Origin: Bacteroidaceae bacterium
Lineage (GTDB): Bacteria; Bacteroidota; Bacteroidia; Bacteroidales; Bacteroidaceae
Direction of reading: 5' to 3'
Length of the DNA stretch: 64,000 bases
Assembly: GCA_017428785.1 (NCBI GenBank)
Contig: JAFRQD010000006.1
Location: 26,098 to 90,097, forward strand
The translations under genes and the position numbers were made by a program. Shown here piece by piece: positions 1 through 61,944 of this stretch. The notes under the pieces were generated by a model. The model saw nothing but the letters and a program-made list of their open reading frames with translations. It made no database searches and was not told the origin of the DNA. Position 1 is the stretch's first letter; every line of letters begins with the position of its first letter.

Positions 1-87
1 AACGCCGCACGCGGGGATTGCCATCGCCGCACGCGGGGATTGCCAACGCCGCACGCGGAAATTGCCAACGCCGCACGCGGGGATTTT
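1..87 (+). repeat. family A 22-bp hairpin array (A1), cut by window edge
   Basis: Four units at exact 22-bp spacing, each built around CGCCGCACGCGG with linkers of the type GGATTGCC or AAATTGCC. The last unit runs into GGATTTT instead of the usual GCGTTTT end, so this copy is atypical. It lies just upstream of the gene at 114 and may continue to the left of the window. Confidence 0.9.
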
Positions 88-113
88 CATCACTCCTAAC
101 CACATTAAATATC

Positions 114-1337
114 ATGGAAACACATGTTCAAATCACCGGGCTGCAATATGCCTGCAAAGAGGCCGAAATACCTGTCGTAATGACTACTTTGGAAAAGCAG
201 AAACCCGAGGTGCTGCTCGTCACGGAACAGACGCACGACTTCGGCATCATTGTCCGCGCATTGATCGGCACAACGTTTCGGGGCGTAGTGAGCCGCTTCG
301 ACCTGGAGAATGTGCTGAGCATGATGCAATGCGGCAACACATCGGTTCTGGTGGGGCAGGTGGCGGACACCGACCCCGAGGGACGCTGCTACAACATCTG
401 CATCAGCGGGGACTACCCCACTCCGGACAAGACAGCCGGCTGTACGCTCTGCCGCTGGGACGAATGGCGCTGGACGGGAACTCCGCTCCTGGACTGCTGC
501 CCCGACGACCGACGACTCGACATCAGCCTCAAGGTGGCGCTGGCAGAACTGCGGCTGGGCAGAAGCATGAACAAGCAGACTCTCCTGGAGCACCTCGACA
601 TCATCCTGCAACTGGCCCGATGGGATGTCAGCCAAGAGACGCAACAACAGCTCAATCACATTCGCCTGCTGGCAGGTCAGCACACAGACAGCGAGGTCCG
701 CTCCTTCGCTCCACGGCTTCGCCACACACTCACCGCCCTGGGCAGCAAGAAACGGATAAAGGAGTTCCAGGACACCTTCCTCCCCATGCTCTGCCAAAGC
801 AAAGAGGCTGAACAGATGTACTGCCTGTGGAGCTCGATGCATAAAGCCGAACTGAGCGACATCAGGCTGTGGCAGCCGACCATCACCAGCCAGCTGGAGG
901 CCATCGAGGACTGCCTGAAGCAGCTGCCCGCCGACCTCTGCTATCAAAAAGACCAGTTCGGAGCACTCATGCACCGCTTGCTCTACCTGAACATACCACG
1001 CTGCAAACTCATGATGCTGCTCTCGGCTCTTGTGATGCGGCGGAAGCTGCAGATGCTTTTGGGCCTGTCGGACGACGAGGCGGAACGGCAGCTCACACTG
1101 CAACTGGCGCCCATCTTCTACGGCGACACAGAAAGGGTGCGCAAATTCCTGCTGCTCGCAAGGGGACAAAAGGGTGCCGACATCACATCCCTCGTCAGCC
1201 GCTGGGTAAGGGACAGCCACATCTGCGCGGCACTCTGCCATCGGCCTCTGTGGACCATCCTGCACGACGCCGGCATCTACAAAGCCACCGAATCCAATTG
1301 GAACATACAGCTGAACATCAGGAAGAGCTGGGGCTAA
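114..1337 (+). CDS. hypothetical protein, possibly HIRAN-like N-terminus
   Basis: I do not recognise a family with certainty. The product has 407 residues. The ATG at 114 was chosen because the longer frame would only translate repeat A1. Residues about 1-90 (VLLVTEQTHDFGIIVRALIG, then FRGVVSRFDLENVLSMM) resemble in layout the HIRAN domain, a small DNA-binding module found with helicases and nucleases; this is inference from pattern only. A cysteine-rich stretch (CTLCRWDEW, then DCC) follows, and the remainder looks helical with no membrane segment. The gene converges on recQ and overlaps its stop by 4 bp, so a role near DNA repair is possible but unproven. Confidence 0.55.
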   Translation: METHVQITGLQYACKEAEIPVVMTTLEKQKPEVLLVTEQTHDFGIIVRALIGTTFRGVVSRFDLENVLSMMQCGNTSVLVGQVADTDPEGRCYNICISGDYPTPDKTAGCTLCRWDEWRWTGTPLLDCCPDDRRLDISLKVALAELRLGRSMNKQTLLEHLDIILQLARWDVSQETQQQLNHIRLLAGQHTDSEVRSFAPRLRHTLTALGSKKRIKEFQDTFLPMLCQSKEAEQMYCLWSSMHKAELSDIRLWQPTITSQLEAIEDCLKQLPADLCYQKDQFGALMHRLLYLNIPRCKLMMLLSALVMRRKLQMLLGLSDDEAERQLTLQLAPIFYGDTERVRKFLLLARGQKGADITSLVSRWVRDSHICAALCHRPLWTILHDAGIYKATESNWNIQLNIRKSWG

Positions 1338-3241
1338 GACCGTGCCGCAAGCTTCAGGAGCATCCCCTCGAGAAGTATCTCCCCGGAGGCTCGCATGTGG
1401 TCGATGACACGCTCTAAAAGCTCAGGATTGAAGCCAGCAAGGTCGAGCTCGTAGGCACTGCGAGGCCCCTCACGAAGCTGCCCGAGGATGTGCTGCCTCA
1501 GAGCCTCCTTCTCATCCGCCGCCACCGCCGTCTCCCTCCTGTGCCGGCAGACATCGCAGATGCCGCAATCGCTGTCCGTCTCCTCACCGAAATACCGCAA
1601 CAGCATACGGCTGCGGCACTGGCTGCTGCCCTCGTCGGCATACTGCAACATCGCCTCGATGCGACGCTCATACTGGCTCCGCCTCTCCTCATAAACGGAC
1701 TGCGGCAGGGTGACCTTCTCCTTGTCTATCCTGCGACGGCGGAAGGTGACACAAGGCAGATGCTTGCGGGGAATGAACGATATGAGATGCAGCTGCGAGA
1801 GCCTCAGGAATATCTGATATATGGCGTCGGCAGACAAAGCGGTCTCCCGCATCAGCAGGTCCTCGTCGATGTAAACGTAGTCCACGAAGATGCCGCCGTA
1901 GCGACGGAGCACCGTCAGCACGAGGCGTTCCTCCGAAGGGAAAAGGGCACGGAACAGTTCGTCGCGAGAGACATTGATGTGCAAGCGGCTGGAAGCATCG
2001 TCCTCGCTTCGGAACTCGATGTATCCGGCTTTGTCCAGCAAGTCGAGGGCGCCTAAAAGTGTGGTCGGGAAATAGCCGTAAGTGCGGCAGAACTTGTCGA
2101 TGTTGAACTCACGCGTCACGAGCATGCCGTCGCCCACAGCAATGCCGAGGAAACACCCCAGCAGCTCATAGACGTCGCGCACATAGTCGATGCTGGGGAA
2201 CTGCTGCGTCATCCGGCGCACCGCCACCTGCCGCTCTCGCCCGTCGGTGAAGAGGATGGCAAAAGCCCGCTCCCCGTCGCGTCCGGCCCGCCCTGCCTCC
2301 TGGAAATAAGCCTCAATGGAATCGGGCATGTCGGCATGCAGCACGAGGCGCACATCCGGCTTGTCGATGCCCATGCCGAAGGCGTTGGTGGCCACCATGA
2401 TGCGCTTCTCTCCACGACGCCAGCGCTCCTGATTCTCATTCTTCTTGAGGCTGGGCAAACCCGCATGGTAGTACGTGGCCGAATACCCCAGCTCCTCAAG
2501 CTGCCCGGCCAGTTCGTAGCACTTCCTCCGGCTGCGTGTGTAGATGATGCAGGAACCCTGTATCGACTGCAGAGCATGGAGCATGCCCTCGAAGATGCTG
2601 TCCTCGCGCCGGACGATGTACGCCAGGTTCTTTCGCTCGAAACTCATCTGCAGCACATTCCTCTCGCGGAAACGCAACTGCTGCTGTATGTCATCGACAG
2701 CCCTGGGCGTCGCCGTGGCCGTAAGCGCCAGCACGGGACAGTCAGGGAAGATGTCGCGGATGTTCGCTACCTGCAGATAGGAAGGACGGAAGTCGTAGCC
2801 CCATTGACAAATGCAGTGTGCCTCATCAACCGTGATGAAACTGACCTGCATGCGACGAAGCTTGTTGAGAAACAACTCGCTCGACAGGCGCTCGGGTGAT
2901 ATGTAGAGGAATTTGTAGGCTCCGAAGATGCTGTTTTCCATGACGGTCAACATCTTCTCGTGCTCCATGTGGCTGTTGATGTAGGCGGCCTTGATGCCAT
3001 GGCGCTTGAGCGCCTCAACCTGATCCTTCATCAGCGAGATGAGCGGCGTGAAGACTATGCAGACGCCCTTCATGGCAAGGGCAGGCACCTGGAACGTTAT
3101 GCTCTTGCCGCCTCCCGTGGGCATCAGGGCAAGCGTGTCGCGCCCCGAGCCGATGCTCTCGATGACCTGCTTCTGGATGCCACGGAATTGGTCGTAGCCC
3201 CAGTACTGACGAAGAAGGGAAAGGTAATCCGTTTCTTTCAT
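1334..3241 (-). CDS. recQ: ATP-dependent DNA helicase RecQ
   Basis: This is a 3'-5' superfamily 2 helicase that unwinds DNA in recombination and fork repair in the cytoplasm. The 635 residues show a Walker A motif (MPTGGGKS, about residues 40-47), a DEAH box (VDEAHCICQWGYDFRPSY), and the arginine-finger motif VI (YFQEAGRAGRDG). A zinc-binding segment has cysteines in CRSRMLLRYFG and CGICDVC. The region after the zinc domain holds winged-helix-like sequence, and I see no clear HRDC domain at the end. recJ lies 42 bp upstream on the same strand, and the two enzymes act together in the RecF pathway, so co-transcription is likely. Confidence 0.93.
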   Translation of the reverse strand: MKETDYLSLLRQYWGYDQFRGIQKQVIESIGSGRDTLALMPTGGGKSITFQVPALAMKGVCIVFTPLISLMKDQVEALKRHGIKAAYINSHMEHEKMLTVMENSIFGAYKFLYISPERLSSELFLNKLRRMQVSFITVDEAHCICQWGYDFRPSYLQVANIRDIFPDCPVLALTATATPRAVDDIQQQLRFRERNVLQMSFERKNLAYIVRREDSIFEGMLHALQSIQGSCIIYTRSRRKCYELAGQLEELGYSATYYHAGLPSLKKNENQERWRRGEKRIMVATNAFGMGIDKPDVRLVLHADMPDSIEAYFQEAGRAGRDGERAFAILFTDGRERQVAVRRMTQQFPSIDYVRDVYELLGCFLGIAVGDGMLVTREFNIDKFCRTYGYFPTTLLGALDLLDKAGYIEFRSEDDASSRLHINVSRDELFRALFPSEERLVLTVLRRYGGIFVDYVYIDEDLLMRETALSADAIYQIFLRLSQLHLISFIPRKHLPCVTFRRRRIDKEKVTLPQSVYEERRSQYERRIEAMLQYADEGSSQCRSRMLLRYFGEETDSDCGICDVCRHRRETAVAADEKEALRQHILGQLREGPRSAYELDLAGFNPELLERVIDHMRASGEILLEGMLLKLAARS

Positions 3242-3248
3242 TATTAAC

Positions 3249-3282
3249 AGGTCCTCCCCTTTTGGAGGAGCAGGAGAGGGGC
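3249..3282. repeat. family E hairpin between recJ and recQ
   Basis: The arms TCCTCC and GGAGGA flank a six-base loop, followed by GGAGAGGGGCTTT. It is one of several C-tract/G-tract hairpins in this window and may attenuate read-through between the two genes. Confidence 0.6.
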
Positions 3283-3283
3283 T

Positions 3284-5005: not shown

Positions 5006-5031
5006 CGTAAAGAAAGGTACGCTGGAGCTCT

Positions 5032-6543: not shown

Positions 6544-6568
6544 GATTTAAGGTGTTAAATTTTGCGCA

Positions 6569-6576
6569 CAAAATTA
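6569..6576 (-). promoter_or_regulatory. TAnnTTTG -7 box for the CoA-transferase gene
   Basis: TAATTTTG on the minus strand, 26 bp before the start codon at 6543. No good TTG -33 element is visible at the expected distance. Confidence 0.5.
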
Positions 6577-6635
6577 CAAAAAAAAACGGAGAATTGTACC
6601 CTTTGTAAGTCTTTTTAACACACCTGGACGTCGTT

Positions 6636-7268: not shown

Positions 7269-7287
7269 CTTCGTATAGAGCCCTTTC

Positions 7288-7373
7288 AAACGCCGCGTGC
7301 GGCGATGGCAATCCCCGCGTGCGGCGTTGGCCATTTCCGCGTGCGGCGTTGGCCATCCCCGCACGCGGCGTTT
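7288..7373 (-). repeat. family A array (A2)
   Basis: Four cores, oriented on the minus strand. It is bounded by AAACGCCGC and GCGGCGTTT, with the outer hairpin CCCCTCTGAGGGG to its right at about 7380-7392. It lies between yidD and tatD. Confidence 0.92.
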
Positions 7374-7409
7374 GGAAGCCCCTCTGAGGGGGGTATTTTG
7401 CAGGGCGTT

Positions 7410-7640
7410 TCAGGGCACCGGATCATACCCGCTGCCTCCCCACGGATGGCACCTGAGCAGCCGTCTCAAGGCGAGCCACGAACCCTTCAGCGGGCCGTAC
7501 TTCCGCAAAGCCTCGATGGCATACTGGCTGCATGTGGGCGTGAAGCGGCACGAGGGAGGCGTCAGCGGAGAAATGAAGCGCTGGTAAAAGCGTATCGGCA
7601 GGATGAGCAGAGTGGTCAGTAATCGCCTCACGATTTTCAA
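7410..7640 (-). CDS. yidD: membrane protein insertion efficiency factor YidD
   Basis: A small peripheral inner-membrane protein that helps YidC insert membrane proteins. The 76 residues match the family. The N-terminus is basic and amphipathic ([20 protein letters not shown]), followed by the diagnostic [20 protein letters not shown] and ending [12 protein letters not shown]. It sits next to rnpA as in most bacteria, but a 212-bp tandem-repeat spacer separates them here instead of a few bases. Confidence 0.95.
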
Positions 7641-7862
7641 TATTCAATATTCATTTTTCAATCTCCAATTACCTTATTCACACGCCTGCAGCAGACTCCT
7701 CTCAATTTTCAATATTCAATTTTCAATCTCCAATTACCTTATTCACACGCCTGCAGCAGACTCCTCTCAATTTTCAATATTCAATTTTCAATCTCCAATT
7801 ACCTTATTCACACGCCTGCAGCAGACTCCTTTCAATTTTCAATATTCAATTTTCAATCTCCA
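7629..7862. repeat. 65-bp tandem repeat between rnpA and yidD
   Basis: Units start at CACGCCTGCAGCAG at 7681, 7746 and 7811, exactly 65 bp apart, with a partial copy before the first. Each unit contains TCAATTTTCAATATTCAATT and ends in CTCCAATTACCTTATT. The copies differ by about one base, so the expansion looks recent. Confidence 0.93.
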
Positions 7863-8233
7863 GCCATCGCCTCATGGATGCGCTGCAGCAAGTTCTGCAT
7901 CTTGTGGCACACGGTTTCGGTGGACATCATCTCGTCGGAAGTCCAGAGGAACGCGATGTCGAGCCCGCCCCCGAGTGGCAGAAGCTTCTCCTTCTGCAGG
8001 CGGTAGGCCTCGCGCAACTGCCGCTTGATGCGGTTCCGCTTCACCGCACGCTTGAAGTAGCGTTTGCTGACAGAGACCATGACGCGCACCGTCTCCAATC
8101 CGTTCGGCATGAAAACGGCACGGATCGGGAAGGCAGTGACCGACTGGTGGCCGCCGCCGAAGAGTTCCTCCATAGCCTTCCGGCTGCAGAGATGCTCGTC
8201 TTTGGAAAAGGAGTGTGTGCCGACGCTATCCAT
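7853..8233 (-). CDS. rnpA: ribonuclease P protein component
   Basis: The protein subunit of RNase P, which matures the 5' ends of tRNAs. The 126 residues contain the RNA-binding signature RYFKRAVKRNRIKRQLREAY. I chose the start MDSVGTHSFSKDEHL at 8233 because the family begins this way; a longer frame to 8350 would extend deep into hemD. The chosen start overlaps the hemD stop by 8 bp, suggesting translational coupling. The 3' end abuts the 65-bp tandem repeats. Confidence 0.93.
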   Translation of the reverse strand: MDSVGTHSFSKDEHLCSRKAMEELFGGGHQSVTAFPIRAVFMPNGLETVRVMVSVSKRYFKRAVKRNRIKRQLREAYRLQKEKLLPLGGGLDIAFLWTSDEMMSTETVCHKMQNLLQRIHEAMAGD

Positions 8234-8969: not shown

Positions 8970-8990
8970 CGTCTGTCGTAATTTTTCCTG

Positions 8991-11723: not shown

Positions 11724-11915
11724 AGTAGAATTAATCCTATTAATATAATTAATAATGTATGGGGAAAGATTCGCGACTGTTATCGCGCCTTGCTGCCGAA
11801 GCATGCAAGAAGTCGGGCACAAATGCGTGAGGAGTCCCGCGGTATCCTCGTTTTAGCATTTTTTACTGTGGTTGCAAGCAGCCCAAATCTATCCACATTT
11901 CGTTTTTCGCGGGTG
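11724..11915 (-). promoter_or_regulatory. structured metK leader, candidate cis-regulatory RNA
   Basis: Read in the metK direction the leader shows three hairpins: GAGGA/TCCTC (11829-11849), a stem TTGC-TGC closed by a TTCG tetraloop (about 11790-11808), and CGCGA/TCGCG (11772-11787). The arms CGGG and CCCG offer an alternative fold that competes with the first hairpin. I do not recognise a named riboswitch class. Confidence 0.4.
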
Positions 11916-13281: not shown

Positions 13282-13371
13282 AAAAACGCCGCCTGCGGGG
13301 ATTGCCAACGCCGCACGCGGAATTGCCCATCGCCGCACGCGGAAATTGCAATCGCCGCACGCGGCGTTTTT
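13282..13371 (+). repeat. family A array (A3)
   Basis: Four cores bounded by AAAAACGCCGCCTGCGG and CCGCACGCGGCGTTTTT. It lies directly after the U32 gene and is followed at once by an intrinsic terminator. Confidence 0.93.
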
Positions 13372-13414: not shown

Positions 13415-13502
13415 TAAGCCTGGAAGGTTATACTATGAGTAACCGAGGGCAGAAACACTAAGCCTGGAAGGCTATACTATGAGTAGCCGAGGGCAGAAGC
13501 AC
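13415..13502 (+). repeat. 44-bp tandem repeat of family B arm
   Basis: Two 44-bp copies (13415, 13459) starting TAAGCCTGGAAGG and ending CGAGGGCAGAA. They are duplications of the left arm of the adjacent family B element, which starts exactly 44 bp further on at 13503. Confidence 0.9.
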
Positions 13503-13697
13503 TAAGCCTGGAAGGCTATACTATGAGTAACCGAGGGCAGAGCCCTCGGACAGAACACGGAGAGCTACGCACCTATCCTGCCTGGAGGGCAGTACATCGG
13601 CATTTCATCGTACTGCCCTCCAGGCAGCAGAGAGCATCTTATCCGCTGATTCCGGAGGCTGAGCCCCCGGTTACTCATAGTGAAGCCCTCCAGGCTT
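13503..13697. repeat. family B long palindromic element (B1)
   Basis: An element of about 195 bp. The left end AAGCCTGGAAGGC is mirrored by GCCCTCCAGGCTT at the right end, GAGTAACCGAGGGC is mirrored by CCCCCGGTTACTC, and an inner pair CTGCCTGGAGGGCAGTAC / GTACTGCCCTCCAGGCAG is perfect. No ORF inside is convincing. Confidence 0.88.
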
Positions 13698-20444: not shown

Positions 20445-20533
20445 AAAAACGCCGCGTGCGGCGATTGCAATCCCCGCGTGCGGCGTTGGTCATTTCCGCG
20501 TGCGGCGTTGGCAATCCCCGCACGCGGCGTTTT
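20445..20533 (-). repeat. family A array (A4)
   Basis: Four cores with interior units in minus orientation (CCGCGTGCGGCGTTGG). The outer hairpin CCCTCTTGAGGG is at its left. The stop codon of the adjacent glycosyltransferase begins 9 bp beyond its right end. Confidence 0.93.
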
Positions 20534-20541
20534 CTACCCCC

Positions 20542-27335: not shown

Positions 27336-27387
27336 GCTGATTTCTAATACTCTGTACTGTCTTCATTTTTGCCTGCAAGGGGCGTTG

Positions 27388-27475
27388 AAAACGCCGGCTG
27401 CGGCGTTGGCAATCGCCGCGTGCGGCGTTGGTCATTTCCGCGTGCGGCGTTGGCCATCCCCGCACGCGGCGTTTT
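27388..27475 (-). repeat. family A array (A5), overlapping the LtaS-like gene
   Basis: Four cores, minus orientation, bounded by AAAACGCCGG and GCGGCGTTTT. The LtaS-like reading frame ends inside it at 27432. Confidence 0.92.
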
Positions 27476-29351
27476 CAAGCATCTCTGGCAGCTGGTCGTA
27501 ACTGCTTTGCAAGAGGGCTTTGGCACGCATGATGCGAAGGCCGCCGTCGGCCGGCTGCTCCATCATCACCGCATCGCCGTCGATGTCGTATATGCTGGTG
27601 CCAGTGCTGTCGGCAAACAGTATGCCGGCAGGCCAGTTGCAATAGACGAAGGGATATGTGTAGGTGCGGCTCAGCACATTGCGGCTCCAGCGGTATTCTT
27701 CGTGACGGATGCCCATCTGGGAGAGCAAGGTGGCCGCTATGTCGCTCTGATTCATGAGGACCTGCATCCTGCGCGGCTCGCGTATGGCTCCGCCGGTCCA
27801 GAGCATCGGGGCACGGAAGAAACCCGGGTCTTTGTAACTCTGCCTGTAGAGGAACCCGTGGTCGGGAATCATGATGACGAGCAGGCTGTCCCATTGCGGC
27901 AGCTGCCGCAGGGTGTCTATCATGCAGGAGATGCTGTAGTCGGTATAGGCGAAGGCATTGAGCTTCTCGTCGTCCAGGCGGTGATAGGGCACGTCCCACG
28001 GCTCGTGGCTGGACAGCGTCTGCGCCACCAGGAAGTGGTGCCCCTCGTCCCAGCCTTTTATAAGTTGGCAGGCCTTCTGCAGGACGATGCTGTCCGGCAT
28101 ACCCCAGGCGCCACCCTCGGACTCCCCTCCACTCCCACTTGCAGGGGAAGGGTCTATACTCGTCTCCTTGGAAGAGAGAAATTGGGAGAGGGTCTGTAGG
28201 GCCTTGTCGTCGTAGAGGTTCTGGAACTCCACATCCTCCAGGAACTGGCGCTTGCCCATGTTCGTCATCGCTCCGCCGTAGATGTAGCCCGTCTCATAGC
28301 CCTCTCTGCCTAAGCTTCGGGCAAGGGAAGGCAGTGCGCCGTGCATCTCGGTTTGCCGCATCAGTCCGATGTCGGCATAGCTCAGCCAGCCGCAGAAAGC
28401 CGAGACGGTGCCGCGGTCGGTCCGGAAAGAGTTGCTGAAATAGTTCTCCCAGAAGATGCCTTGGGGGATGAGGCGGCTCCAGCCTGGCGCCACATCAGGC
28501 AATCCGCCCAGCTCCCGCACGAAGCGACTGCCGAAACTCTCGATGAAAACGACCAGAATGTCGGGCCGCGAGGTCAGGAGAAGGGTGTCCTGTATGTCGT
28601 CGGCCGGCTCGGGATAGAGCCCTCGGAACAGGTCGGAACGTTCCGCCTCAGGCAGTAATTCGTATCGCCCCGCGTAATCATCCGACAGGCGAACGCTGCG
28701 GACAAAAGCATAGACGGGATTGACGGCAGCATGGTCGGCCAGCTGTGTGGGATGAGGCTTGCGGGTATAGACGTCGCCCTGATGCATGAAGCACAGCCCC
28801 GAGACAAGCAGGAAGATCCAGATGATGCTGATGTTGCGCATCCAGAGGCGCTCGGTATGTCCGTTCGGAAGCGTCTTCGGCGTAAGCAGGAAGCAGGGAA
28901 TAATCGTCCACAAGGCAAGCAAAAGGAAGAGCCCTGCGCGTATCAGGATGTAAGAGAGGCTGACGCTATTGGTGGCGCCTTCGGGCGAAGCGGCATAACT
29001 CAGCACGACCATTCCCAGCTTGAACTGCCAGTACTCATACATCACGGCATCTGCCACAATGATGGCTGCCACAGCCAGTCCCATCACGATATAGTAGGGA
29101 GAGAGCCACGCCCTGAGCCTCAACCCGGGACGACGCAAGGCAAGCAATCCGACCAGCCAAGGCACGACGAGCAACCAGGCGGCAACCATGAGGTCGTGCC
29201 CCACGAAGCCTCGCCAGCAAGCACCCGCCGCATCGGCCAAAGAGAGCGGCTCCACACACCTGTTGTTCAAGATGAACCCCACCCTGCCTATCAGGAAAAC
29301 GATAAGCAGATGACAGTAGAGGTACTCCAGAAAGTGTATGCTTCGCTTCAT
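27432..29351 (-). CDS. LtaS/phosphoethanolamine-transferase-like membrane sulfatase-fold protein
   Basis: The 639 residues have an N-terminal membrane part (about five helices up to residue 190) and a periplasmic alkaline-phosphatase-fold domain: LVVFIESFGSRFVRE, the nucleophile region NSFRTDRGTVSAF (Thr), AQTLSSHEPWDVPYH and VIMIPDHGFLY. Family members transfer phosphoglycerol or phosphoethanolamine to surface polymers, which fits the locus. Two oddities: residues about 393-425 (ETSIDPSPASGSGGESEGGA) look like translated family E repeat, and the last residues (ENAACGDGQRRTRK) are translated array A5, so the native C-terminus has been overwritten. Confidence 0.85.
   Translation of the reverse strand: MKRSIHFLEYLYCHLLIVFLIGRVGFILNNRCVEPLSLADAAGACWRGFVGHDLMVAAWLLVVPWLVGLLALRRPGLRLRAWLSPYYIVMGLAVAAIIVADAVMYEYWQFKLGMVVLSYAASPEGATNSVSLSYILIRAGLFLLLALWTIIPCFLLTPKTLPNGHTERLWMRNISIIWIFLLVSGLCFMHQGDVYTRKPHPTQLADHAAVNPVYAFVRSVRLSDDYAGRYELLPEAERSDLFRGLYPEPADDIQDTLLLTSRPDILVVFIESFGSRFVRELGGLPDVAPGWSRLIPQGIFWENYFSNSFRTDRGTVSAFCGWLSYADIGLMRQTEMHGALPSLARSLGREGYETGYIYGGAMTNMGKRQFLEDVEFQNLYDDKALQTLSQFLSSKETSIDPSPASGSGGESEGGAWGMPDSIVLQKACQLIKGWDEGHHFLVAQTLSSHEPWDVPYHRLDDEKLNAFAYTDYSISCMIDTLRQLPQWDSLLVIMIPDHGFLYRQSYKDPGFFRAPMLWTGGAIREPRRMQVLMNQSDIAATLLSQMGIRHEEYRWSRNVLSRTYTYPFVYCNWPAGILFADSTGTSIYDIDGDAVMMEQPADGGLRIMRAKALLQSSYDQLPEMLENAACGDGQRRTRK
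28113..28155. repeat. family E repeat inside the LtaS-like gene
   Basis: GACTCCCCTCCACTCCCACT followed by TGCAGGGGAAGGG, read in frame by the minus-strand gene as a Ser/Gly-rich insert. Confidence 0.55.
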
Positions 29352-31969: not shown

Positions 31970-32058
31970 AAAAACGCCGCACGCGGCGATGCCCAACGCC
32001 GCACGCGGGGATTGCCAACGCCGCACGCGGAATTTGCCATCGCCGCACGCGGCGTTTT
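31970..32058 (+). repeat. family A array (A6)
   Basis: Four cores bounded by AAAAACGCCGC and GCGGCGTTTT. The outer hairpin CCCCTACAGGGG lies to the right at 32064-32075. It lies downstream of bcp. The rest of the 31.74-32.16 kb gap shows nothing beyond the argS promoter and AT-rich sequence. Confidence 0.93.
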
Positions 32059-32158
32059 CAAGGCCCCTACAGGGGGGTAAAAACCAGGGCTCGCTCCCAA
32101 CCTTTTCGTCACCAAGTAGAAGAGGCAGAGAGGCTCGGTCCGGCGGGCCAAGAAGGCT

Positions 32159-34092: not shown

Positions 34093-34181
34093 AAAAACGC
34101 CGCGTGCGGGGATTGCCAACGCCGCACGCGGAAATGACCAACGCCGCACGCGGAAATTGCAATCCCCGCACGCGGCGTTTT
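34092..34181 (+). repeat. family A array (A7)
   Basis: Four cores bounded by AAAAAACGCCGCGTGCGG and CCGCACGCGGCGTTTT. It sits between the convergent DUF3237 and murQ genes. Confidence 0.93.
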
Positions 34182-34209
34182 ATGATGCCGCCAGGGGAAT
34201 CGTATCTCT

Positions 34210-38343: not shown

Positions 38344-38428
38344 ATCCGGGCGCCTCAGAGGAAAATCCTGTAGTGCCCTGATTTCGTGCGTGTTATGGCA
38401 GGTATTCAATTCCCCTATAGGGGACTTC

Positions 38429-38518
38429 AAAACGCCGCACGCGGCGATGCCCAACGCCGCACGCGGGGATTGCCATCGCCGCACGCGGAATTTGCCATCG
38501 CCGCACGCGGCGTTTTTT
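38429..38518 (+). repeat. family A array (A8)
   Basis: Four cores bounded by AAAACGCCGC and GCGGCGTTTTTT, with the outer hairpin CCCCTATAGGGG at 38412-38423. It lies 3' of the DKNYY gene. Confidence 0.93.
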
Positions 38519-43215: not shown

Positions 43216-45159
43216 ATGGAGTTCAAATATGACGTCGTAGTTGTCGGTGCTGGCCATGCTGGATGCGAGGCTGCAACGGCTGCCGCAAAACTCGGAGCTA
43301 AGACTTGCCTCATTACGATGGACATGAACAAGATTGCGCAAATGTCGTGCAACCCAGCCATCGGAGGCATTGCCAAAGGACAGATTGTCAGGGAAATAGA
43401 CGCACTGGGAGGTCACACAGGCGAGGTGACGGACCAGACGGCCATACAGTTCCGCATGCTCAACCGCTCGAAAGGGCCAGCCATGTGGAGCCCCAGGGCA
43501 CAATGCGACAGGGCAAAATTCATCTGGAAATGGCGGGAAATACTGGAAAACACACCGGGACTCTCCATCTGGCAAGACCAGGTTGTGGAACTCCTCACGG
43601 AGGACTTCAAAACGCCGCAGGCGGAAAATAAATCGCCGCACGCGGCGATGACCAACGCCGCACGCGGGGATTGCCAACGCCGCGTGCGGGGATTGAGGAC
43701 TCTGCAAGGTGTTGATTTTCAGGCCTCTTGCGTCATCATAACGGCGGGCACTTTCCTCAACGGACTGATGCACATCGGACGCACACAGATTCCAGGCGGA
43801 CGATGCGCAGAACTGCCGAGCCTCCATCTCTCGGAGAGCATCGCGGCACAAGGCATCACCGTAGGGCGCATGAAGACCGGAACACCGGTTCGCATCGACG
43901 GACGCTCGGTGGACTTCTCCCTGCTACAGAGGCAGGACGGAGAACAGGACTTCCACAAATTCTCCTATATAGGCGAACCGCGTCAGCTGCCACAGCTGCC
44001 GTGCTGGATCACCTACACGAGCGAGGCGGTGCACGAGCGGCTGAGGGCTGCCCTACCCGACTCGCCGCTCTACAACGGGCAAATTCAAAGCATCGGCCCG
44101 CGATACTGCCCAAGCATCGAGACGAAGCTCGTCACATTCTCTGAACGCACTGAACATCAGCTGTTTCTGGAGCCGGAAGGGACTTCCACGAACGAGTATT
44201 ATCTGAATGGCTTCTCGAGTTCGCTGCCTATCGATGCTCAGATTGAGGCCTTGAAACTGATTCCGGCCTTCCGCGACCTGCAGGTGTATCGACCTGGGTA
44301 TGCGATAGAATACGATTTTTTCGACCCGACACAGCTGCGGCACTCGCTGGAGTCCAAGATTGTGGACGGGCTCTTCATGGCCGGACAAGTGAACGGCACG
44401 ACGGGCTACGAAGAGGCTGCGGGACAGGGACTGGTGGCGGGCGTCAACGCGGCGCGCAAGATTGCCGGACTCGAGCCGTTCGTCATGCGAAGGGACGAGT
44501 CCTACATCGGCGTCCTCATTGACGATCTGGTCACAAAAGGCGTTGATGAACCTTACCGCATGTTCACGTCGAGGGCCGAGTATCGCATCTTGCTTCGGCA
44601 AGACGACGCGGATGCACGACTCACGGAACGCAGCTACGAAATGGGCCTCGCCACACGCGAACGCTACGACCACTGGCTGCGTAAGAAGCAGGCTATCAAG
44701 GAGATAGAAGACTTCTGCAGTTCCTACAGTGTGAAAGCCGCGTATATAAACAAAGGCCTGAAAGCGCTGGGAAGCGAGGAGCTGCAGAGAGGTTGCAAAC
44801 TCATCGACCTGGTGATGCGGCCGCAGCTCTCCCTCTCAAACCTCGCTCCGTTCATCCCTGCCCTATCCGACAAGCTGAACTGCATCACCGACCGTCGCGA
44901 AGAAATCATGGAGGCTGCCGAGGTGCGCATGAAGTACAGCGGCTACATCCGCAGGGAGAAGGAGATAGCCGAGAAGATACACCGCCTGGAGAACATCCGC
45001 ATCAAGGGACGATTCAACTACCAGGACATACAATCACTCAGCACAGAAGCCCGTCAGAAACTCGCCAAAATAGACCCCGAAACGATGGCACAGGCCAGCC
45101 GTATCCCCGGCGTCAGTCCCAGCGACATAAACGTCCTGCTGGTCTTGCTGAATCGATAA
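43216..45159 (+). CDS. mnmG: tRNA uridine-5-carboxymethylaminomethyl modification enzyme MnmG (GidA)
   Basis: With MnmE it modifies the wobble uridine of several tRNAs in an FAD- and folate-dependent reaction. The 647 residues show the FAD site VVVGAGHAGCEAATAAAKLG, the cysteine region CNPAIGGIAKGQIVREIDAL, VIITAGTFLNGLMHIG, GRMKTGTPVRIDGRS and GYEEAAGQGLVAGVNAARKI. It is about 20 residues longer than usual because array A9 is read in frame at residues about 132-159 (KTPQAENKSPHAAMTNAARG and on) in a loop between two conserved strands. All flanking motifs are intact, so the enzyme probably still works. A parS-like site overlaps the stop codon. Confidence 0.95.
   Translation: MEFKYDVVVVGAGHAGCEAATAAAKLGAKTCLITMDMNKIAQMSCNPAIGGIAKGQIVREIDALGGHTGEVTDQTAIQFRMLNRSKGPAMWSPRAQCDRAKFIWKWREILENTPGLSIWQDQVVELLTEDFKTPQAENKSPHAAMTNAARGDCQRRVRGLRTLQGVDFQASCVIITAGTFLNGLMHIGRTQIPGGRCAELPSLHLSESIAAQGITVGRMKTGTPVRIDGRSVDFSLLQRQDGEQDFHKFSYIGEPRQLPQLPCWITYTSEAVHERLRAALPDSPLYNGQIQSIGPRYCPSIETKLVTFSERTEHQLFLEPEGTSTNEYYLNGFSSSLPIDAQIEALKLIPAFRDLQVYRPGYAIEYDFFDPTQLRHSLESKIVDGLFMAGQVNGTTGYEEAAGQGLVAGVNAARKIAGLEPFVMRRDESYIGVLIDDLVTKGVDEPYRMFTSRAEYRILLRQDDADARLTERSYEMGLATRERYDHWLRKKQAIKEIEDFCSSYSVKAAYINKGLKALGSEELQRGCKLIDLVMRPQLSLSNLAPFIPALSDKLNCITDRREEIMEAAEVRMKYSGYIRREKEIAEKIHRLENIRIKGRFNYQDIQSLSTEARQKLAKIDPETMAQASRIPGVSPSDINVLLVLLNR
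43609..43692 (+). repeat. family A array (A9) inside mnmG
   Basis: Four cores at 22-bp spacing, starting AAAACGCCGC and ending CGCGTGCGGGGATTGA, without the usual GCGTTTT end. It is preceded by CTCC-TCAC-GGAG and GACTTC, the same flank as array A8. Confidence 0.92.
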
Positions 45160-45174
45160 GTTTCACGTGGAACA
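45159..45174. promoter_or_regulatory. parS-like centromere site
   Basis: AGTTTCACGTGGAACA differs at one of 16 positions from the form TGTTTCACGTGGAACA of the widely conserved ParB site. It begins on the last base of the mnmG stop codon. A weaker match with two differences, CGTTCCGCGTGGAACA, lies within uvrC near 46855. Confidence 0.75.
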
Positions 45175-45182: not shown

Positions 45183-45244
45183 TAGTAACAAATGATAAAT
45201 GGTAAATGATTAAATGGTAAATGGAAAATGATTAAATGATAAAT
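45183..45244. repeat. low-complexity AAATGATAAATGG spacer
   Basis: Repeated AAATGGTAAATGATTAAATG-type words fill the gap between mnmG and apt. Confidence 0.6.
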
Positions 45245-45249
45245 GCAAG

Positions 45250-45780
45250 ATGAATAATGAATATCTACTGAAGAACTTGCGAAATGTGCCGGACTTTCCT
45301 GTGCCTGGCATACAGTTCAAGGATGTGAGCACGCTGTATAAGAACCCCAAATGCCTGAAGATAATGGTCAACGAGCTCTACGAACTCTACAAGGACAAAG
45401 GCATAACAAAGGTGGTGGGCATCGAGAGCCGTGGCTTCGTCGTTGGCGCCGCACTGGCTGTCAAGCTGGGAGCTGGGTTCGTGATGTGTCGCAAACCAGG
45501 CAAACTCCCCGCAGAAACACGCAAGGAAAGCTATATGAAGGAATACGGCAAGGATACCATCGAGATTCATACGGATGCTATCGAGGAGAAAGATGTGGTC
45601 CTTCTCCACGATGACCTCCTCGCCACAGGAGGCAGCATGAAGGCCGCCTACAACCTCGTCAAGCAGTTCAATCCTAAGAAGATCTACATAAACTTCATCA
45701 TCGAGCTGACCATAGAAGGGCTCAACGGCCGCGCTGTCTTCGACAAAGATGTGGAAATGACCACCCTTCTCAAGATATAA
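45250..45780 (+). CDS. apt: adenine phosphoribosyltransferase
   Basis: Salvages adenine to AMP using PRPP in the cytoplasm. The 176 residues show the N-terminal NLRNVPDFPVPGIQFKDVST, VVGIESRGFVVGAALAVKLG, RKPGKLPAETRKESYMKEYG and the PRPP-binding VVLLHDDLLATGGSMKAAYN. Length and motifs agree with the family. Probably transcribed with mnmG and uvrC. Confidence 0.95.
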   Translation: MNNEYLLKNLRNVPDFPVPGIQFKDVSTLYKNPKCLKIMVNELYELYKDKGITKVVGIESRGFVVGAALAVKLGAGFVMCRKPGKLPAETRKESYMKEYGKDTIEIHTDAIEEKDVVLLHDDLLATGGSMKAAYNLVKQFNPKKIYINFIIELTIEGLNGRAVFDKDVEMTTLLKI

Positions 45781-50735: not shown

Positions 50736-50825
50736 AAAAACGCCGCCTGCGGCGATGGCAATCCCCGCGTGCGGCGTTGACCATTTCCGCGTGCGGCGTT
50801 GCCAATCCCCGCACGCGGCGTTTTT
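50736..50825 (-). repeat. family A array (A10)
   Basis: Four cores, interior in minus orientation, bounded by AAAAACGCCGCCTGCGG and CCGCACGCGGCGTTTTT, with GCCCTCAGGGGC at its left. It probably terminates the OmpA transcript. Confidence 0.93.
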
Positions 50826-52975: not shown

Positions 52976-53006
52976 ATTATGAACTACTAATCATGAATTA
53001 AACAAG

Positions 53007-54035: not shown

Positions 54036-54059
54036 GGTGTACTTCTGGAGTTTGTGTAA

Positions 54060-54097
54060 TAAATAGTAAATGGTTAAATGATTAAATGTAAATTGTA
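54060..54097. repeat. low-complexity TAAATGGTTAAATG spacer
   Basis: Simple AT-rich repeat between ruvB and the SpmA/B-like gene. Confidence 0.5.
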
Positions 54098-54099
54098 AG

Positions 54100-55329: not shown

Positions 55330-56448
55330 GTGATACGCGAGACGATACACCATCAGCACCGACGGGCGTTCTCTCACGACTATCGGGAACGGGGGACGTA
55401 CATGGTGACGCTTGTGGTGGCAGGTCGGCATCCTGTCTTCGGCCATATAGAAGGCCATGCGAAAGGGAAGCCCGGCACAGACGAGGCGCCGCACATGGTG
55501 CTCTCCGAACTGGGGAGACAAGTGATGGAAGAGGAGGCGAGGAAGATCAGCCGCTTCTATCCCATGGCGGAGGTATGGCGCATCTGCATCATGCCCGACC
55601 ACATTCACCTGCTCATAAGGATAAGCGAGCCCCTGCCGGAAGGCAAGCACCTGGGCTCGATAGTGCGCGGCTTCAAGACCGGCTGCAGCCGCGCCTGGTG
55701 GGCACTAAGCCCGGGAGAGCCCGGGGGAAAAGCCCCGGGCACAGCGGCAGGAAAAGCCCCGCGCACAGCAACACCGGCCGCCGTGCCCGAGGCTTCTCCC
55801 TCGGGCTCTCTCCGCCCTGTCCTCTTCGAGAAGGGCTACCACGACCGCATCATCAACCGCCCGGGCATGCTTGAGAACATCAAGCGCTACATGGCCGAGA
55901 ACCCGCTCCGTGCCCGCATTCGCCAGGAATGTCCAAAGCTCATGGAGCGACAGTTGCACCTGTGGATAGGCGGACGCGAATATGCTGCCTTCGGTAATCT
56001 CTTCCTGCTAAAGTATCCGCAGAAGGAGCAAGTGTTCTTCCACCGCAGAGATGCCGCGACTGGCCTGCCCACGGAAGCCACCGAGGCTTATCAGCAGGAA
56101 CGTCAGCGCCTCTTGCTGATGGCTGAAGAGGGAACGGTGCTCGTCACGCCTGGCATATCGAAGGGCGAGAGCCTCATTGTCAGCGCGGCTCCCGATGCGC
56201 AACTGCCCCTTATCCTCCTTCAGAAGGAACCCATCGGCGAATATTGGAAGCCTTCGCAGCACCGCTTCTATGCTTGTGCGGCTGGCCACTTACTCATCCT
56301 CGCCCCCTGGCAAAACGAAGGGCATTCCGATTATGCCCGCTTCCATCACCTCAACGACCTCGCCAAGGAAATCTGTGCTGCCAACGAAATGCGGATTGTG
56401 GACTACGACCGGCTGAAGGAGCTAACGCACAGTCATTCAGCAGAATAG
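55330..56448 (+). CDS. RAYT-type (REP-associated) Y1 HUH transposase
   Basis: A relative of the IS200 TnpA single-strand transposases that act on REP hairpins. The 372 residues have the HUH motif in RICIMPDHIHLLIRI (His91, His93), the start FSHDYRERGTYMVTLVVAGR and the likely catalytic tyrosine Tyr170 in EKGYHDRIINRPGMLENIKR. Between them, residues about 125-160 (GEPGGKAPGTAAGKAPRTAT and on) are translated family D hairpins, an insert not expected in the family. The C-terminal part (about 215-372) is an extension seen in Bacteroidetes members. It starts with GTG directly on the upstream stop codon, and array A11 follows by 33 bp. No flanking target duplications are visible. Confidence 0.85.
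   Translation: MIRETIHHQHRRAFSHDYRERGTYMVTLVVAGRHPVFGHIEGHAKGKPGTDEAPHMVLSELGRQVMEEEARKISRFYPMAEVWRICIMPDHIHLLIRISEPLPEGKHLGSIVRGFKTGCSRAWWALSPGEPGGKAPGTAAGKAPRTATPAAVPEASPSGSLRPVLFEKGYHDRIINRPGMLENIKRYMAENPLRARIRQECPKLMERQLHLWIGGREYAAFGNLFLLKYPQKEQVFFHRRDAATGLPTEATEAYQQERQRLLLMAEEGTVLVTPGISKGESLIVSAAPDAQLPLILLQKEPIGEYWKPSQHRFYACAAGHLLILAPWQNEGHSDYARFHHLNDLAKEICAANEMRIVDYDRLKELTHSHSAE
55702..55810 (+). repeat. family D hairpins inside the RAYT gene
   Basis: Perfect 8-bp-arm hairpins GCCCGGGG/CCCCGGGC (about 55718-55739) and GCCCGAGG/CCTCGGGC (about 55784-55805), with the words GGGCACAGCGGCAG and GAAAAGCCCCGCGCACAGC shared with the cluster at 49.5 kb. Confidence 0.85.
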
Positions 56449-56481
56449 CCCAACTTACAAATCCCCCTGTGCGAGGCCTGC

Positions 56482-56568
56482 AAACGCCGCCTGCGGAATT
56501 TGCAATCGCCGCACGCGGAAATGGCAAACGCCGCACGCGGAAATGGCAATCCCCGCACGCGGCGTTTT
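56482..56568 (+). repeat. family A array (A11)
   Basis: Four cores bounded by AAACGCCGCCTGCGG and CCGCACGCGGCGTTTT, followed by CCTC-A-GAGG and ACTTTTTT. It lies between the convergent RAYT and carbohydrate-binding protein genes. Confidence 0.93.
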
Positions 56569-56591
56569 CTGTCCCCCCTCAGAGGACTTTT

Positions 56592-59474: not shown

Positions 59475-59619
59475 ATATTATAATAATGTATATAAGCGTT
59501 GCTGATGGCAAAATTAGGAAGTTTTGTTCAAGTGGCAAGCATATTAAAGAATTATTTTTAAACAATTTCGACTTTTGGTACAATATGAGGCAAAAAAACA
59601 CGCCGCAAAAGGGCCTTGC

Positions 59620-59706
59620 AAACGCCGCGTGCGGCGTTGCCAATCCCCGCGTGCGGCGTTGGGCATTTCCGCGTGCGGCGTTTGCCATCCCCGCACGCGG
59701 CGTTTT
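59620..59706 (-). repeat. family A array (A12)
   Basis: Four cores, interior in minus orientation, bounded by AAACGCCGCGTGCGG and CCGCACGCGGCGTTTT. Unlike most copies it lies between divergent genes, upstream of both. The remainder of the 59.48-59.81 kb gap holds the dacB promoter and AT-rich sequence. Confidence 0.92.
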
Positions 59707-59783
59707 CGAGTCTCGCGAAAGGGCATTTTCTCCATAACGCAATATTTTTTATTGTTCGATATTCAATATTCAATTATTTGTCG

Positions 59784-59791
59784 TAACTTTG
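59784..59791 (+). promoter_or_regulatory. TAnnTTTG -7 box for dacB
   Basis: TAACTTTG, 21 bp before the ATG at 59813. Confidence 0.6.
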
Positions 59792-59812
59792 CGGCAAGAT
59801 TAGCACAGAGCG

Positions 59813-61186
59813 ATGAAATACACAAAGTACCTGCTGCTGCTGCTCCTGCTGGCATCCTGTGCCACGAAGCGCACCATACGGCATCACACCTATCAGGCTG
59901 ATGTGCGTCCGGCCGTGCCTGCTGTGGTGCAGGCGCCCGTGGCGGTGGCTGAGGAGGAAGAGCCCGAGGCGGAAGAGCCTGTGGTGAGCGCACGGCCGCT
60001 CGTCTCGCAGGTGCGCAGAGCCGCCGAAGGAACCTGGCAATACGAAAAGCAGCAGGCGCTCGACCTGCTCTGTCAGGCACCGCTCTTCGAGACCACACAG
60101 CTCGGACTCTATGTGTACGACCTGACCGACAGTGAGCCGCTCTATGCCGTCAATGCCGCCCACAGGATGCGTCCCGCCTCGTGCCAGAAACTGGTGACGG
60201 CCATCACGGCGCTCCACTATCTGAAGAGCGACTTCCGGCTCCACACCGACTTCCGCATCAAGGGAAAGGTGGTGAATGGTGTCCTGCAAGGCGACCTCAT
60301 CGTGGTTGGCGGGATGGACCCGATGGTCACGGCCGACGAGTTGTTCCAGGCCGCTGCCACCATCAAGCAACAGCAAGGCATAGGAAGCATTGCGGGCAAC
60401 ATCATCTACGACCGCTCGATGCGCGAAGATGCTCCGTACGGCTGGGGCTGGTGCTGGGACGACGACTATGGGCCGCTCTCCGCTCTGCTCGTGGATGGCA
60501 AGGACCAGTTTGAGCAGAAATGGACGGAGGCGCTCGAGAAGGTCGGCATCAAAGCCCCCAACCTCAACCCCTCTCCCAAGGAGGAGGGGAGAAACGGGCG
60601 GAAAGGAAGCAATAGCCTCTCTCCTCGGGGGGAGGCAGGAGGGGCGCTTGTCTATTCCATCCGTCACGACCTCGACTTGCTGCTCGAGAAGATGATGAAG
60701 GAGAGCAACAACATCTACGCCGAATGCCTGTTCTATCAGACGGCAGCCACTACGGGAAAGAAAGGCGGCGGACACAAAGAAGTAGCGGCAAGGACGGAGG
60801 AACTGCTGCAACGCATCGGTCTGCAGCCGGACCGCTACAAGATTGCCGACGGCAGCGGGCTGTCGCTCTACAACTATGCCTCTGCGGAAATGCTCGTCGC
60901 CCTGCTCGGCTATGCCTGGCGCACCGAACGGATCCGCGAACACCTGCTGCCCTCGCTGCCCATCGCAGGCTACGACGGCACCCTCAAGAACAGGATGATA
61001 GGCACAACGGCCGAGGGCAATGTGAAGGCCAAGACAGGCACCGTGACCGGCATCTCATCGCTGGCCGGATACCTCACGGCTGCGAACGGACACATCCTCG
61101 CCTTCGCCATCATCAACCAAGGCGTCAGTTCCATGGCATTGGGGCGCGCCTTCCAGGACAAGATATGCCAGGAACTCTGCAGATAA
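59813..61186 (+). CDS. dacB: D-alanyl-D-alanine carboxypeptidase/endopeptidase, PBP4 type
   Basis: A class C penicillin-binding protein that trims peptidoglycan peptides in the periplasm. The 457 residues start with a lipoprotein signal (YLLLLLLLASCATKR). The catalytic motifs are SCQK in HRMRPASCQKLVTAITAL, SNN in MKESNNIYAECLF and KTG in GNVKAKTGTVTGISSLAGYL. Residues about 252-279 (NPSPKEEGRNGRKGSNSLSP and on) are a translated family E repeat sitting in a loop. It is shorter than E. coli PBP4 and may lack part of its insert domains. Confidence 0.92.
   Translation: MKYTKYLLLLLLLASCATKRTIRHHTYQADVRPAVPAVVQAPVAVAEEEEPEAEEPVVSARPLVSQVRRAAEGTWQYEKQQALDLLCQAPLFETTQLGLYVYDLTDSEPLYAVNAAHRMRPASCQKLVTAITALHYLKSDFRLHTDFRIKGKVVNGVLQGDLIVVGGMDPMVTADELFQAAATIKQQQGIGSIAGNIIYDRSMREDAPYGWGWCWDDDYGPLSALLVDGKDQFEQKWTEALEKVGIKAPNLNPSPKEEGRNGRKGSNSLSPRGEAGGALVYSIRHDLDLLLEKMMKESNNIYAECLFYQTAATTGKKGGGHKEVAARTEELLQRIGLQPDRYKIADGSGLSLYNYASAEMLVALLGYAWRTERIREHLLPSLPIAGYDGTLKNRMIGTTAEGNVKAKTGTVTGISSLAGYLTAANGHILAFAIINQGVSSMALGRAFQDKICQELCR
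60563..60650. repeat. family E repeat inside dacB
   Basis: CCCCTCTCCCAAGGAGGAGG and CTCTCTCCTCGGGGGGAGGC, two C-tract/G-tract hairpins read in frame. Confidence 0.65.
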
Positions 61187-61238
61187 ACCATCCGAAAGTA
61201 ACAAATATCTAACCGTAATAACTTAAATTTTAGCAATT

Positions 61239-61817
61239 ATGAAAAAGTTTTTAGCAATGGTGGCATTTGCCATCTCACTGCCCACAATGGCACAGACAAT
61301 GTACGACGGCAAGACTTGCGCTCAGTGGCAAGCCGACTTCAACAACGAAGTGACCAGACTGAAGATGGAGCTGAAGACCCTGAAGCAGAACGCAAAACTG
61401 GCCGGCGCATCGACAAGTGTATCCGAAATCACCGAGAAAGCCGCACAGCTGAAGAAGGCAGAGAACAACCTCAAGGTGGCTAAGAAAGCCGCTGCACTCG
61501 AGAAGAAGGCCGACAGCTCGCACGAAAAGGCAGAGAACAAGTCGCTAAAACTGCAGTCGCAACACGCCAAGAGCACAGAAAAACTGTCTAAGATGCAAAG
61601 CAAGGAGACAAAGGCAGAACAGGCTGTGGCCAAGGCTGAGCAGAACCTGCAGAAGGCTCAGCAAAAGCTGGAGAGCCTCCGCACAGAGATGGAGAACACA
61701 AAGAAGAACATGGAAAACCTGAAGGAGGAAGACGAGCTGACAAAGGGTGACATCAACAAGGCCAAGAGCATGAAAGAGCAGGCTAAGAAGATGCTCATCG
61801 AAGGCGTCTCAAGATAA
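61239..61817 (+). CDS. secreted coiled-coil protein
   Basis: I recognise no named family. The 192 residues begin with a signal peptide (MKKFLAMVAFAISLPTMAQ). Nearly the whole mature part, residues about 35-185, is Lys/Glu/Ala-rich with heptad spacing (KAEQAVAKAEQNLQKAQQKL), so a long periplasmic coiled coil is expected. One cysteine (GKTCAQW) is near the start of the mature protein. It follows dacB by 52 bp and may be co-transcribed; a structural role near the cell wall is speculative. Confidence 0.7.
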   Translation: MKKFLAMVAFAISLPTMAQTMYDGKTCAQWQADFNNEVTRLKMELKTLKQNAKLAGASTSVSEITEKAAQLKKAENNLKVAKKAAALEKKADSSHEKAENKSLKLQSQHAKSTEKLSKMQSKETKAEQAVAKAEQNLQKAQQKLESLRTEMENTKKNMENLKEEDELTKGDINKAKSMKEQAKKMLIEGVSR

Positions 61818-61833
61818 CCCCTTTGCCAACCTT

Positions 61834-61944
61834 AAAAAACGCCGCCTGTGGCGTTGCCAATCGCCGCACGTGGAAATGACAATCTCCGCCTGCGGCGATT
61901 CCCATCCCCGCACGCGGCGTTTCCCATCCCCGCACGCGGCGTTT
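61834..61944 (+). repeat. family A array (A13), longest and most divergent
   Basis: Five cores, with irregular members (GCCTGTGGCG, CACGTGGAAAT, CTCCGCCTGCGG) and a duplicated last core CCATCCCCGCACGCGGCG. The flank ACCCTCCACAGGGT lies to its right. It separates the convergent coiled-coil gene and trmH. Confidence 0.9.

What the first reader, a model, noticed from the sequence alone, without database searches (positions are those of the whole stretch)
1..61944. A dispersed family of 22-bp hairpin arrays, thirteen copies in 64 kb
Arrays at 1, 7288, 13282, 20445, 27388, 31970, 34092, 38429, 43609, 50736, 56482, 59620 and 61834 share a core CGCCGC-RY-GCGG repeated every 22 bp, usually four times. 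They have outer ends AAAACGCCGC and GCGGCGTTTT that are inverted repeats of each other. The spacing is about one array per 5 kb, mostly at gene 3' ends. Copy number, fixed unit number and conserved ends go beyond chance GC-rich sequence. They resemble REP/BIME elements, but I know of no described family with this unit.
Basis: partly seen in the sequence, partly recalled or inferred. Interest (0 to 1): 0.85.

Follow-up and report, generated by a model that had tools for sequence, protein, structure and literature searches.

The report
Site-fixed 22-bp hairpin arrays, changing letters
Short DNA hairpins repeated every 22 bases are scattered through this gut-type bacterium, and related species carry arrays of the same 22-base design, sometimes at exactly the same place (even inside one protein gene) but spelled with different letters, which suggests that such repeats are rewritten in place by a process not yet described.

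Summary
In detail: 13 arrays, core CCGC-NN-GCGG every 22 bp, usually four units, mostly at gene 3' ends. They are one "dialect" of something wider. Other species of the genus carry arrays of the same 22-bp period with other letters; many units share the skeleton CAAAC-N4-CACG-N4'-GTTTG, and the N4 arms covary. Period-22 arrays also occur in Bacteroides, Hoylesella and Parabacteroides loci, but none in 20 stretches from other families of the order, 20 from the class/phylum, or 100 kb of E. coli. Letters go with the genome more than with the site. One array lies in frame inside mnmG: among the 25 closest readable species, 22 have a period-22 array at that spot, in 10-15 letter groups; 0 of 20 more distant same-genus species do. 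Two species with 98.7% identical flanks carry unrelated letters there. Arrays therefore look replaced in place rather than drifted. No dedicated transposase was found: 8 of 13 genomes matching the family I model lack a match to the RAYT (REP-associated transposase) model. Best reading: recombinogenic palindromic satellites that overwrite older arrays. Mechanism and function are inferred.

The parts
1..86 (+). family I array, four units seen, cut by the window start
7287..7374 (-). family I array, four units
13282..13371 (+). family I array, four units
20445..20534 (-). family I array, four units
27387..27476 (-). family I array, four units
31970..32059 (+). family I array, four units
34093..34181 (+). 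family I array, four units plus a degenerate fifth core at 34188
38428..38517 (+). family I array, four units
43609..43695 (+). family I array, four units, in frame inside mnmG
43216..45159 (+). mnmG, the gene that carries the in-frame array
   Evidence: TIGR00136, 768 bits, cut-off 525
50736..50825 (-). family I array, four units; the same intergenic region holds other letters in several relatives
56480..56569 (+). family I array, four units, about 30 bp after the RAYT-like gene 55330-56448
59619..59707 (-). family I array, four units, between divergent genes
61836..61945 (.). degenerate family I array, five cores

Best explanation
These are palindromic satellite elements. A 22-bp unit (a constant frame around two complementary, variable arms) is repeated about 3 to 6 times, and a four-unit array can fold as one long hairpin. 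SHOWN by sequence comparison: the unit, the period, the copy number, genome-specific letters, shared sites, in-frame persistence inside mnmG, abrupt letter differences between close relatives, unit-number differences and covarying arms. INFERRED: (1) hairpin-prone arrays break or slip, so units are gained, lost and homogenised within an array; (2) one successful array type spreads through a genome, copied as a block of about four units; (3) copies land preferentially on or in existing arrays, or short tracts are exchanged with other strains, so the site stays while the letters change; (4) 3' ends are favoured because insertions there are tolerated, and some copies may double as bidirectional terminators. 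No dedicated enzyme has been identified.
For: Period 22 stands out in a letter-blind scan (periods 13-40, low-complexity arrays removed): own sample 78 at 22 vs 17 at all other periods together; 20 same-genus stretches 27 vs 18; mnmG neighbourhoods of ten relatives 36 vs 11; 80 named Bacteroidales loci 37 vs 48. Outside: 0 in 20 stretches of other families of the order (391 kb), 0 in 20 of the class/phylum (400 kb), 0 in 100 kb of E. coli. Letters follow the genome: shared 8-mers same genome/other site 0.231 (n=104), other genome/same site 0.067 (n=125), other/other 0.022 (n=852). mnmG: 22 of 25 closest readable species with period-22 identity of 0.6 or more against 0 of 20 more distant same-genus species, as for one ancestral array; the 21 longest arrays form 10-15 letter groups. 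G005/G109: flanks 98.7% identical, array sharing 0.02. At site C of the same pair letters agree in part and unit number differs. Arms pair in 2.43 of 4 positions vs 1.37 shuffled, 0 of 2000 shuffles. Folding: 49 of 49 arrays z below -2 against mononucleotide shuffles. Unit order is preserved among copies (first-unit centre GT in 26 or CT in 15 of 52, later units mostly AC), as expected of a copied block.
Against: No enzyme or intermediate was found. No target-site duplication: longest flanking direct repeat 2.50 observed vs 2.28 in shuffled pairs, n=52. Other-style units are enriched 22 bp outside family I arrays (dyad 3.21 vs 2.35, sd 0.10; 21% of 104 ends vs 3-9% at control distances), but left and right are not paired (12 left, 10 right, 1 both of 52), so nesting in older arrays is not shown. 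The mnmG array resembles its own genome best in only 5 of 10 genomes. Unit palindromy is weak in many families (mean fold z about -1; own minor families -0.41), and 33 of 76 non-family-I genus units lack CACG/CGTG. Sharing of intergenic sites may partly reflect the small number of suitable 3' ends. Differences at the G005/G109 array edges (6 of 48 bases, chosen by eye) hint at ordinary horizontal exchange.
Confidence: 0.5

Rival explanations
1. REP/MITE-like transposition: a RAYT or other transposase inserts arrays at preferred 3'-end hot spots, and old copies are lost, so the same site is hit again by other families.
For: High copy number, TIR-like ends and block-like copies; a RAYT-like gene at 55330-56448 lies next to array 56480; PMC3733652 (passages) reports different REPs at about the same site in recB of two Xanthomonas species.
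Against: No TSD signal; 8 of 13 genomes that match the family I model have no RAYT-model match, and RAYT matches are commoner in the other 48 (30); 1 of 14 testable RAYT-like loci has an array within 400 bp. Genomes are incomplete, so absence is uncertain. Repeated exact in-frame loss and gain at one mnmG codon position in 21-22 species is unlikely.
Confidence: 0.2
2. Horizontal exchange alone: homologous recombination between strains swaps short tracts that happen to contain arrays, and nothing special rewrites them.
For: Six differences in 48 edge bases between G005 and G109, against 1.3% in the rest of the flanks; the G109 right edge equals that of G008 and G089.
Against: Does not explain why all spellings share the 22-bp design or why letters are shared across sites of one genome.
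Confidence: 0.12
3. Binding sites of a fast-evolving dimeric DNA-binding protein: the 22-bp register places sites on one face of the helix, and the letters change as the protein changes.
For: Dyad symmetry, fixed register of two helical turns, constant frame with covarying arms, orientation roughly random relative to genes (16 same, 21 other in tandem context; 6:6 convergent).
Against: Several letter families coexist in one genome; letters are unrelated between species with 98.7% identical flanks, too abrupt for change of hundreds of sites by selection; no candidate protein.
Confidence: 0.1
4. Bidirectional intrinsic terminators or 3'-end RNA hairpins, kept for structure, not letters.
For: 3'-end location, strong hairpins (49 of 49) and T runs of 4 or more at the 3' edge in 26 of 49.
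Against: 23 of 49 lack such a T run; one array sits in mid-gene in mnmG in 22 of 25 close species; single hairpins would suffice, so the fixed 22-bp register stays unexplained.
Confidence: 0.08

Closest known systems
BrickBuilt MITE / 23-nt minisatellite of Porphyromonas gingivalis (PMC4596501: outline with abstract, passages and section 8 seen)
   Same: Bacteroidales; tandem units of nearly the same length; predicted long stem-loops; dispersed; unit number varies between strains
   Different: 23 nt, 19 copies in one strain, reported as always intergenic, leader and tail with IS5-type TIRs; here 22 bp, 160 reported matches, usually four units, gene 3' ends, one copy in frame in mnmG, species-specific letters
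REP/BIME elements mobilised by RAYT (PMC3733652: passages seen)
   Same: short palindromes, high copy, mostly downstream of genes, differing between species; different REPs at one site in recB are reported there
   Different: no GTAG or CGTC tag, strict 22-bp tandem register, no consistent RAYT association
Rickettsia palindromic elements (PMC10969869: passages seen)
   Same: palindromic element kept in frame inside a protein gene
   Different: RPEs are about 150 bp, code a conserved peptide and hit many genes; here one confirmed gene, a tandem array, and letters and peptide differ between species

Membership tests
REP/BIME (RAYT-mobilised) | GTAG (or CGTC) tag at one end of the palindrome | tested here: not met
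   absent from the ends of the family I consensus AAAACGCCGC...GCGGCGTTTT; other letter families not checked for the tag
REP/BIME (RAYT-mobilised) | RAYT gene flanked by the repeat | tested here: not met
   1 of 14 testable RAYT-like loci (of 30 fetched) has a period-22 array within 400 bp, the window's own; 8 of 13 genomes matching the family I model have no RAYT-model match
REP/BIME (RAYT-mobilised) | high copy, mostly extragenic, near gene 3' ends | tested here: met
MITE | terminal inverted repeats | tested here: met
   16-bp inverted ends in the family I consensus
MITE | target-site duplication | tested here: not met
   longest flanking direct repeat 2.50 vs 2.28 in shuffled pairs, n=52
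MITE | parent transposon with the same ends | not tested
   no systematic search for a gene bounded by these ends
BrickBuilt | 23-nt unit with leader and tail subunits | tested here: not met
   22-bp spacing in 175 of 178 steps in the own sample; leader and tail were not searched for by sequence
Rickettsia palindromic element | conserved peptide encoded in frame | tested here: not met
   peptides at the mnmG site differ between species
Intrinsic terminator | stable hairpin followed by a U run | tested here: inconclusive
   hairpin in 49 of 49, T run of 4 or more in 26 of 49; no transcript data
Rfam RNA families | covariance-model match | tested here: not met
   two matches in the window at E up to 0.1, neither on an array

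The most novel reading that the evidence does not exclude
A 22-bp ruler system: an unidentified enzyme builds and rebuilds palindromic arrays at fixed chromosomal addresses in this genus and related Bacteroidales, renewing the variable arms with compensation and, inside mnmG, keeping the reading frame, so that every lineage carries its own repeat dialect.
Probability: 0.2. Interest if true: 0.92.

Novelty: new variant of a known kind. Interest (0 to 1): 0.72.

Why it matters
Repeat families are usually defined and found by their letters. Here the letters are what changes, while the period, the frame and sometimes the exact site stay. Such elements escape letter-based repeat searches, which may be why ten searches of an open-access library gave no description. 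The mnmG site is a natural experiment: one codon position, many species, many spellings, always in frame. It makes rewriting of bacterial repeats in place directly testable, and it bears on annotation, strain typing and assembly of gut and rumen Bacteroidales.

Tried and rejected
RAYT as mobiliser: the window's RAYT-like gene beside array 56480 looked decisive (notebook) but failed the wider test. In one search, 16 of 30 loci were not tested because my HUH expression found no ORF there. The Y1_Tnp search of the own genome found one IS200-type gene and missed the divergent RAYT-like genes.

New arrays nested in the centre of old ones: suggested by pooled flanks, not supported as left-right pairs.

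Period scans without the low-complexity filter also raise periods 15, 16 and 21, so the filtered scan is used; period 12 (29, 32, 17 and 83 arrays in the four sets) was left out because its test window is only 24 bases. Of the 20 same-genus stretches, 12 were taken where the family I model matched and 8 from genomes without a match; 4 of these 8 (G001, G016, G021, G053) still have a period-22 array. One hit in the window at 45173 is an AT-rich 7-mer repeat and was not counted.

mnmG: 5 of the 30 closest loci (G020, G050, G071, G079, G101) were not read by my expression. In one search I aligned 30 of the 80 named mnmG loci; only L091 has such an array, several others have short inserts and L102 a long unrelated one. 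A second mnmG loop in other species holds inserts of another kind.

Literature. Opened: PMC5771137, PMC3733652, PMC10969869, PMC8040213 (passages only) and PMC4596501 (outline, passages, section 8). All others were seen as listings. Searches were badly framed and uninformative. No bioRxiv preprints and few subscription papers are in that library.

Full report
The thing itself. The window lies in an unnamed 2.98-Mb, 71-contig genome, 84% complete. All 13 arrays are present. The family I consensus is about 90 bp, from AAAACGCCGCGTGCGG to CCGCACGCGGCGTTTT, so its ends are 16-bp inverted repeats. The genome has 540 unit sites within one mismatch of AACGCCGCACGCGG and none of the reversed control. 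A sequence-only model of ten window copies reports 160 matches, a lower bound because only 150 candidates were scored. In 440 kb (the window plus 19 stretches, most chosen around known hits), 53 of 62 chains have four units and 175 of 178 steps are 22 bp. Four-unit copies keep an order: the first-unit centre is GT in 26 and CT in 15 of 52, later units mostly AC. This points to copying of a block.

Context. Of 57 arrays of three or more units, 12 are convergent, 37 tandem, 5 divergent, 2 inside predicted genes and 1 at an edge; intergenic bases are about 9% convergent, 71% tandem and 20% divergent. The median distance is 29 bp to a stop codon (49 arrays) and 199 bp to a start (42). Orientation relative to the neighbouring gene is near random (tandem 16 same, 21 other; convergent 6:6). 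All 49 arrays folded give z below -2 against mononucleotide shuffles (mean -6.2); the four printed structures are single long hairpins. A T run of 4 or more stands at the 3' edge in 26 of 49.

Not one family but a class. The family I model matched 13 of 61 genus genomes, own included, but many fetched loci showed other letters with the same design. A letter-blind scan for tandem period, low-complexity arrays removed, found at period 22: 78 arrays in the own sample, 27 in 20 same-genus stretches, 36 around mnmG in ten relatives and 37 in 80 named Bacteroidales loci (24 of the 80 loci). All other periods from 13 to 40 together gave 17, 18, 11 and 48. Period 12 was left out. The own and same-genus stretches were partly picked at known hits; the mnmG neighbourhoods and the 80 loci were picked by a gene. 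The same scan gave no period-22 array in 20 stretches from other families of the order, 20 from the class or phylum, or 100 kb of E. coli K-12; this is one stretch per genome, so rare arrays could be missed. Named loci with hits include Bacteroides, Hoylesella and Parabacteroides. In the own sample at least three other letter families coexist with family I.

Unit anatomy. In the genus, 43 of 76 non-family-I units contain CACG/CGTG (chance 0.12); aligned on it they share CAAAC-N4-CACG-N4'-GTTTG. In the Bacteroidales loci without L091 only 7 of 33 do (chance 0.15), so the skeleton belongs to the genus while the period is wider. Among 37 distinct arm pairs the arms pair in 2.43 of 4 positions against 1.37 when shuffled, 0 of 2000 shuffles reaching it. 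This keeps no account of relatedness, and units were placed by the CACG and frame. Palindromy of whole units is moderate (mean fold z about -1) and weak in the own minor families (-0.41).

Sites stay, letters change. Across 12 genomes around mnmG the shared 8-mer fraction is 0.231 for the same genome at other sites, 0.067 for other genomes at the same site and 0.022 for both different. The strongest site is inside mnmG (TIGR00136). The array at 43609 is read in frame in a loop that is mostly short in other Bacteroidales. Of the 30 best same-genus loci, own included, 25 could be read. Period 22 is the best period in 23 of 25, and 22 of 25 reach 0.6 identity. In 20 more distant same-genus species none reaches 0.6, which fits one origin in this clade. 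Site lengths are 159, 162, 180, 201 or 225 nt, all multiples of three although 22 is not. The 21 sites of at least 180 nt fall into 10, 12 or 15 letter groups, depending on threshold. Letters do not simply follow the flanks: G005/G109 are 98.7% identical with sharing 0.02 and G075/G080 90% with 0.00, but G005/G034 are 89.5% with 0.90 and G012/G024 95% with 1.00. At the G005/G109 array edges 6 of 48 bases differ, and the G109 right edge equals that of G008 and G089, which suggests a short exchanged tract. At four other sites of this pair, A and B have different letters, while C and D share letters in part and differ in unit number.

Mechanism. Shown: period, copy number, genome dialects, site sharing, abrupt switches, unit-number differences, covarying arms. 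Inferred: hairpin-prone arrays slip and recombine, a successful block spreads in the genome, and spreading or exchanged copies overwrite older arrays. Units of another spelling (CCCC..GGGG-like) are enriched 22 bp outside family I arrays (dyad 3.21 vs 2.35, sd 0.10), which would fit leftovers of older arrays, but they are not paired left and right (1 both of 52). No TSD signal was found. The mnmG array resembles the other arrays of its own genome (0.169 vs 0.035), though its own genome ranks first in only 5 of 10.

Transposase test. A RAYT-like gene at 55330-56448 ends about 30 bp before array 56480. In the genus 35 of 61 genomes have RAYT-model matches, but only 5 of the 13 that match the family I model, against 30 of the 48 others; some of those 48 have arrays of other letters. 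Only 1 of 14 testable RAYT-like loci has an array nearby. With 57 arrays among 301 predicted genes in the sample, one such neighbourhood is unremarkable.

Novelty. No array matched Rfam. Ten searches of an open-access library gave no description. The nearest published element seen is BrickBuilt of P. gingivalis. I rate this a new variant of a known kind, dispersed palindromic repeats, with an unusual mode of change.

Noticed in passing
window 55330-56448 (+): RAYT-like HUH transposase gene with a long C-terminal extension, 43 bits to NF047646 (curated cut-off 80); long RAYT-like ORFs occur in many same-genus genomes, often several per genome.
   Followed up: partly
window 11843-11902 (-): SAM-II riboswitch (Rfam RF01726, 56.7 bits, gathering score 44).
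   Followed up: no
L263-L282 (mnmG of other same-genus species): A second mnmG loop (query residues about 255-260) carries other in-frame inserts, some with PPVREG or PSLTGR-type peptides that suggest another palindromic repeat.
   Followed up: partly
window 13415-13541: 44-bp tandem repeat, about 2.9 copies, 95% matches, shortly after the array at 13282.
   Followed up: no
window 7637-7862: 65-bp tandem repeat, 3.5 copies, built of TTTCAAT-like 7-mers; an AT-rich repeat of 22-bp period lies at 45190-45257.
   Followed up: no
L031 1405-1857 (-): IS200/IS605-type transposase gene (NF033573, 61 bits, cut-off 55) without a family I array in its 3.3-kb locus.
   Followed up: yes
L106, L108, L110, L121, L138 and other named loci: Period-22 arrays with yet other letters in Bacteroides, Hoylesella and Parabacteroides; seven period-23 arrays also occur in the 80 loci.
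   Followed up: partly
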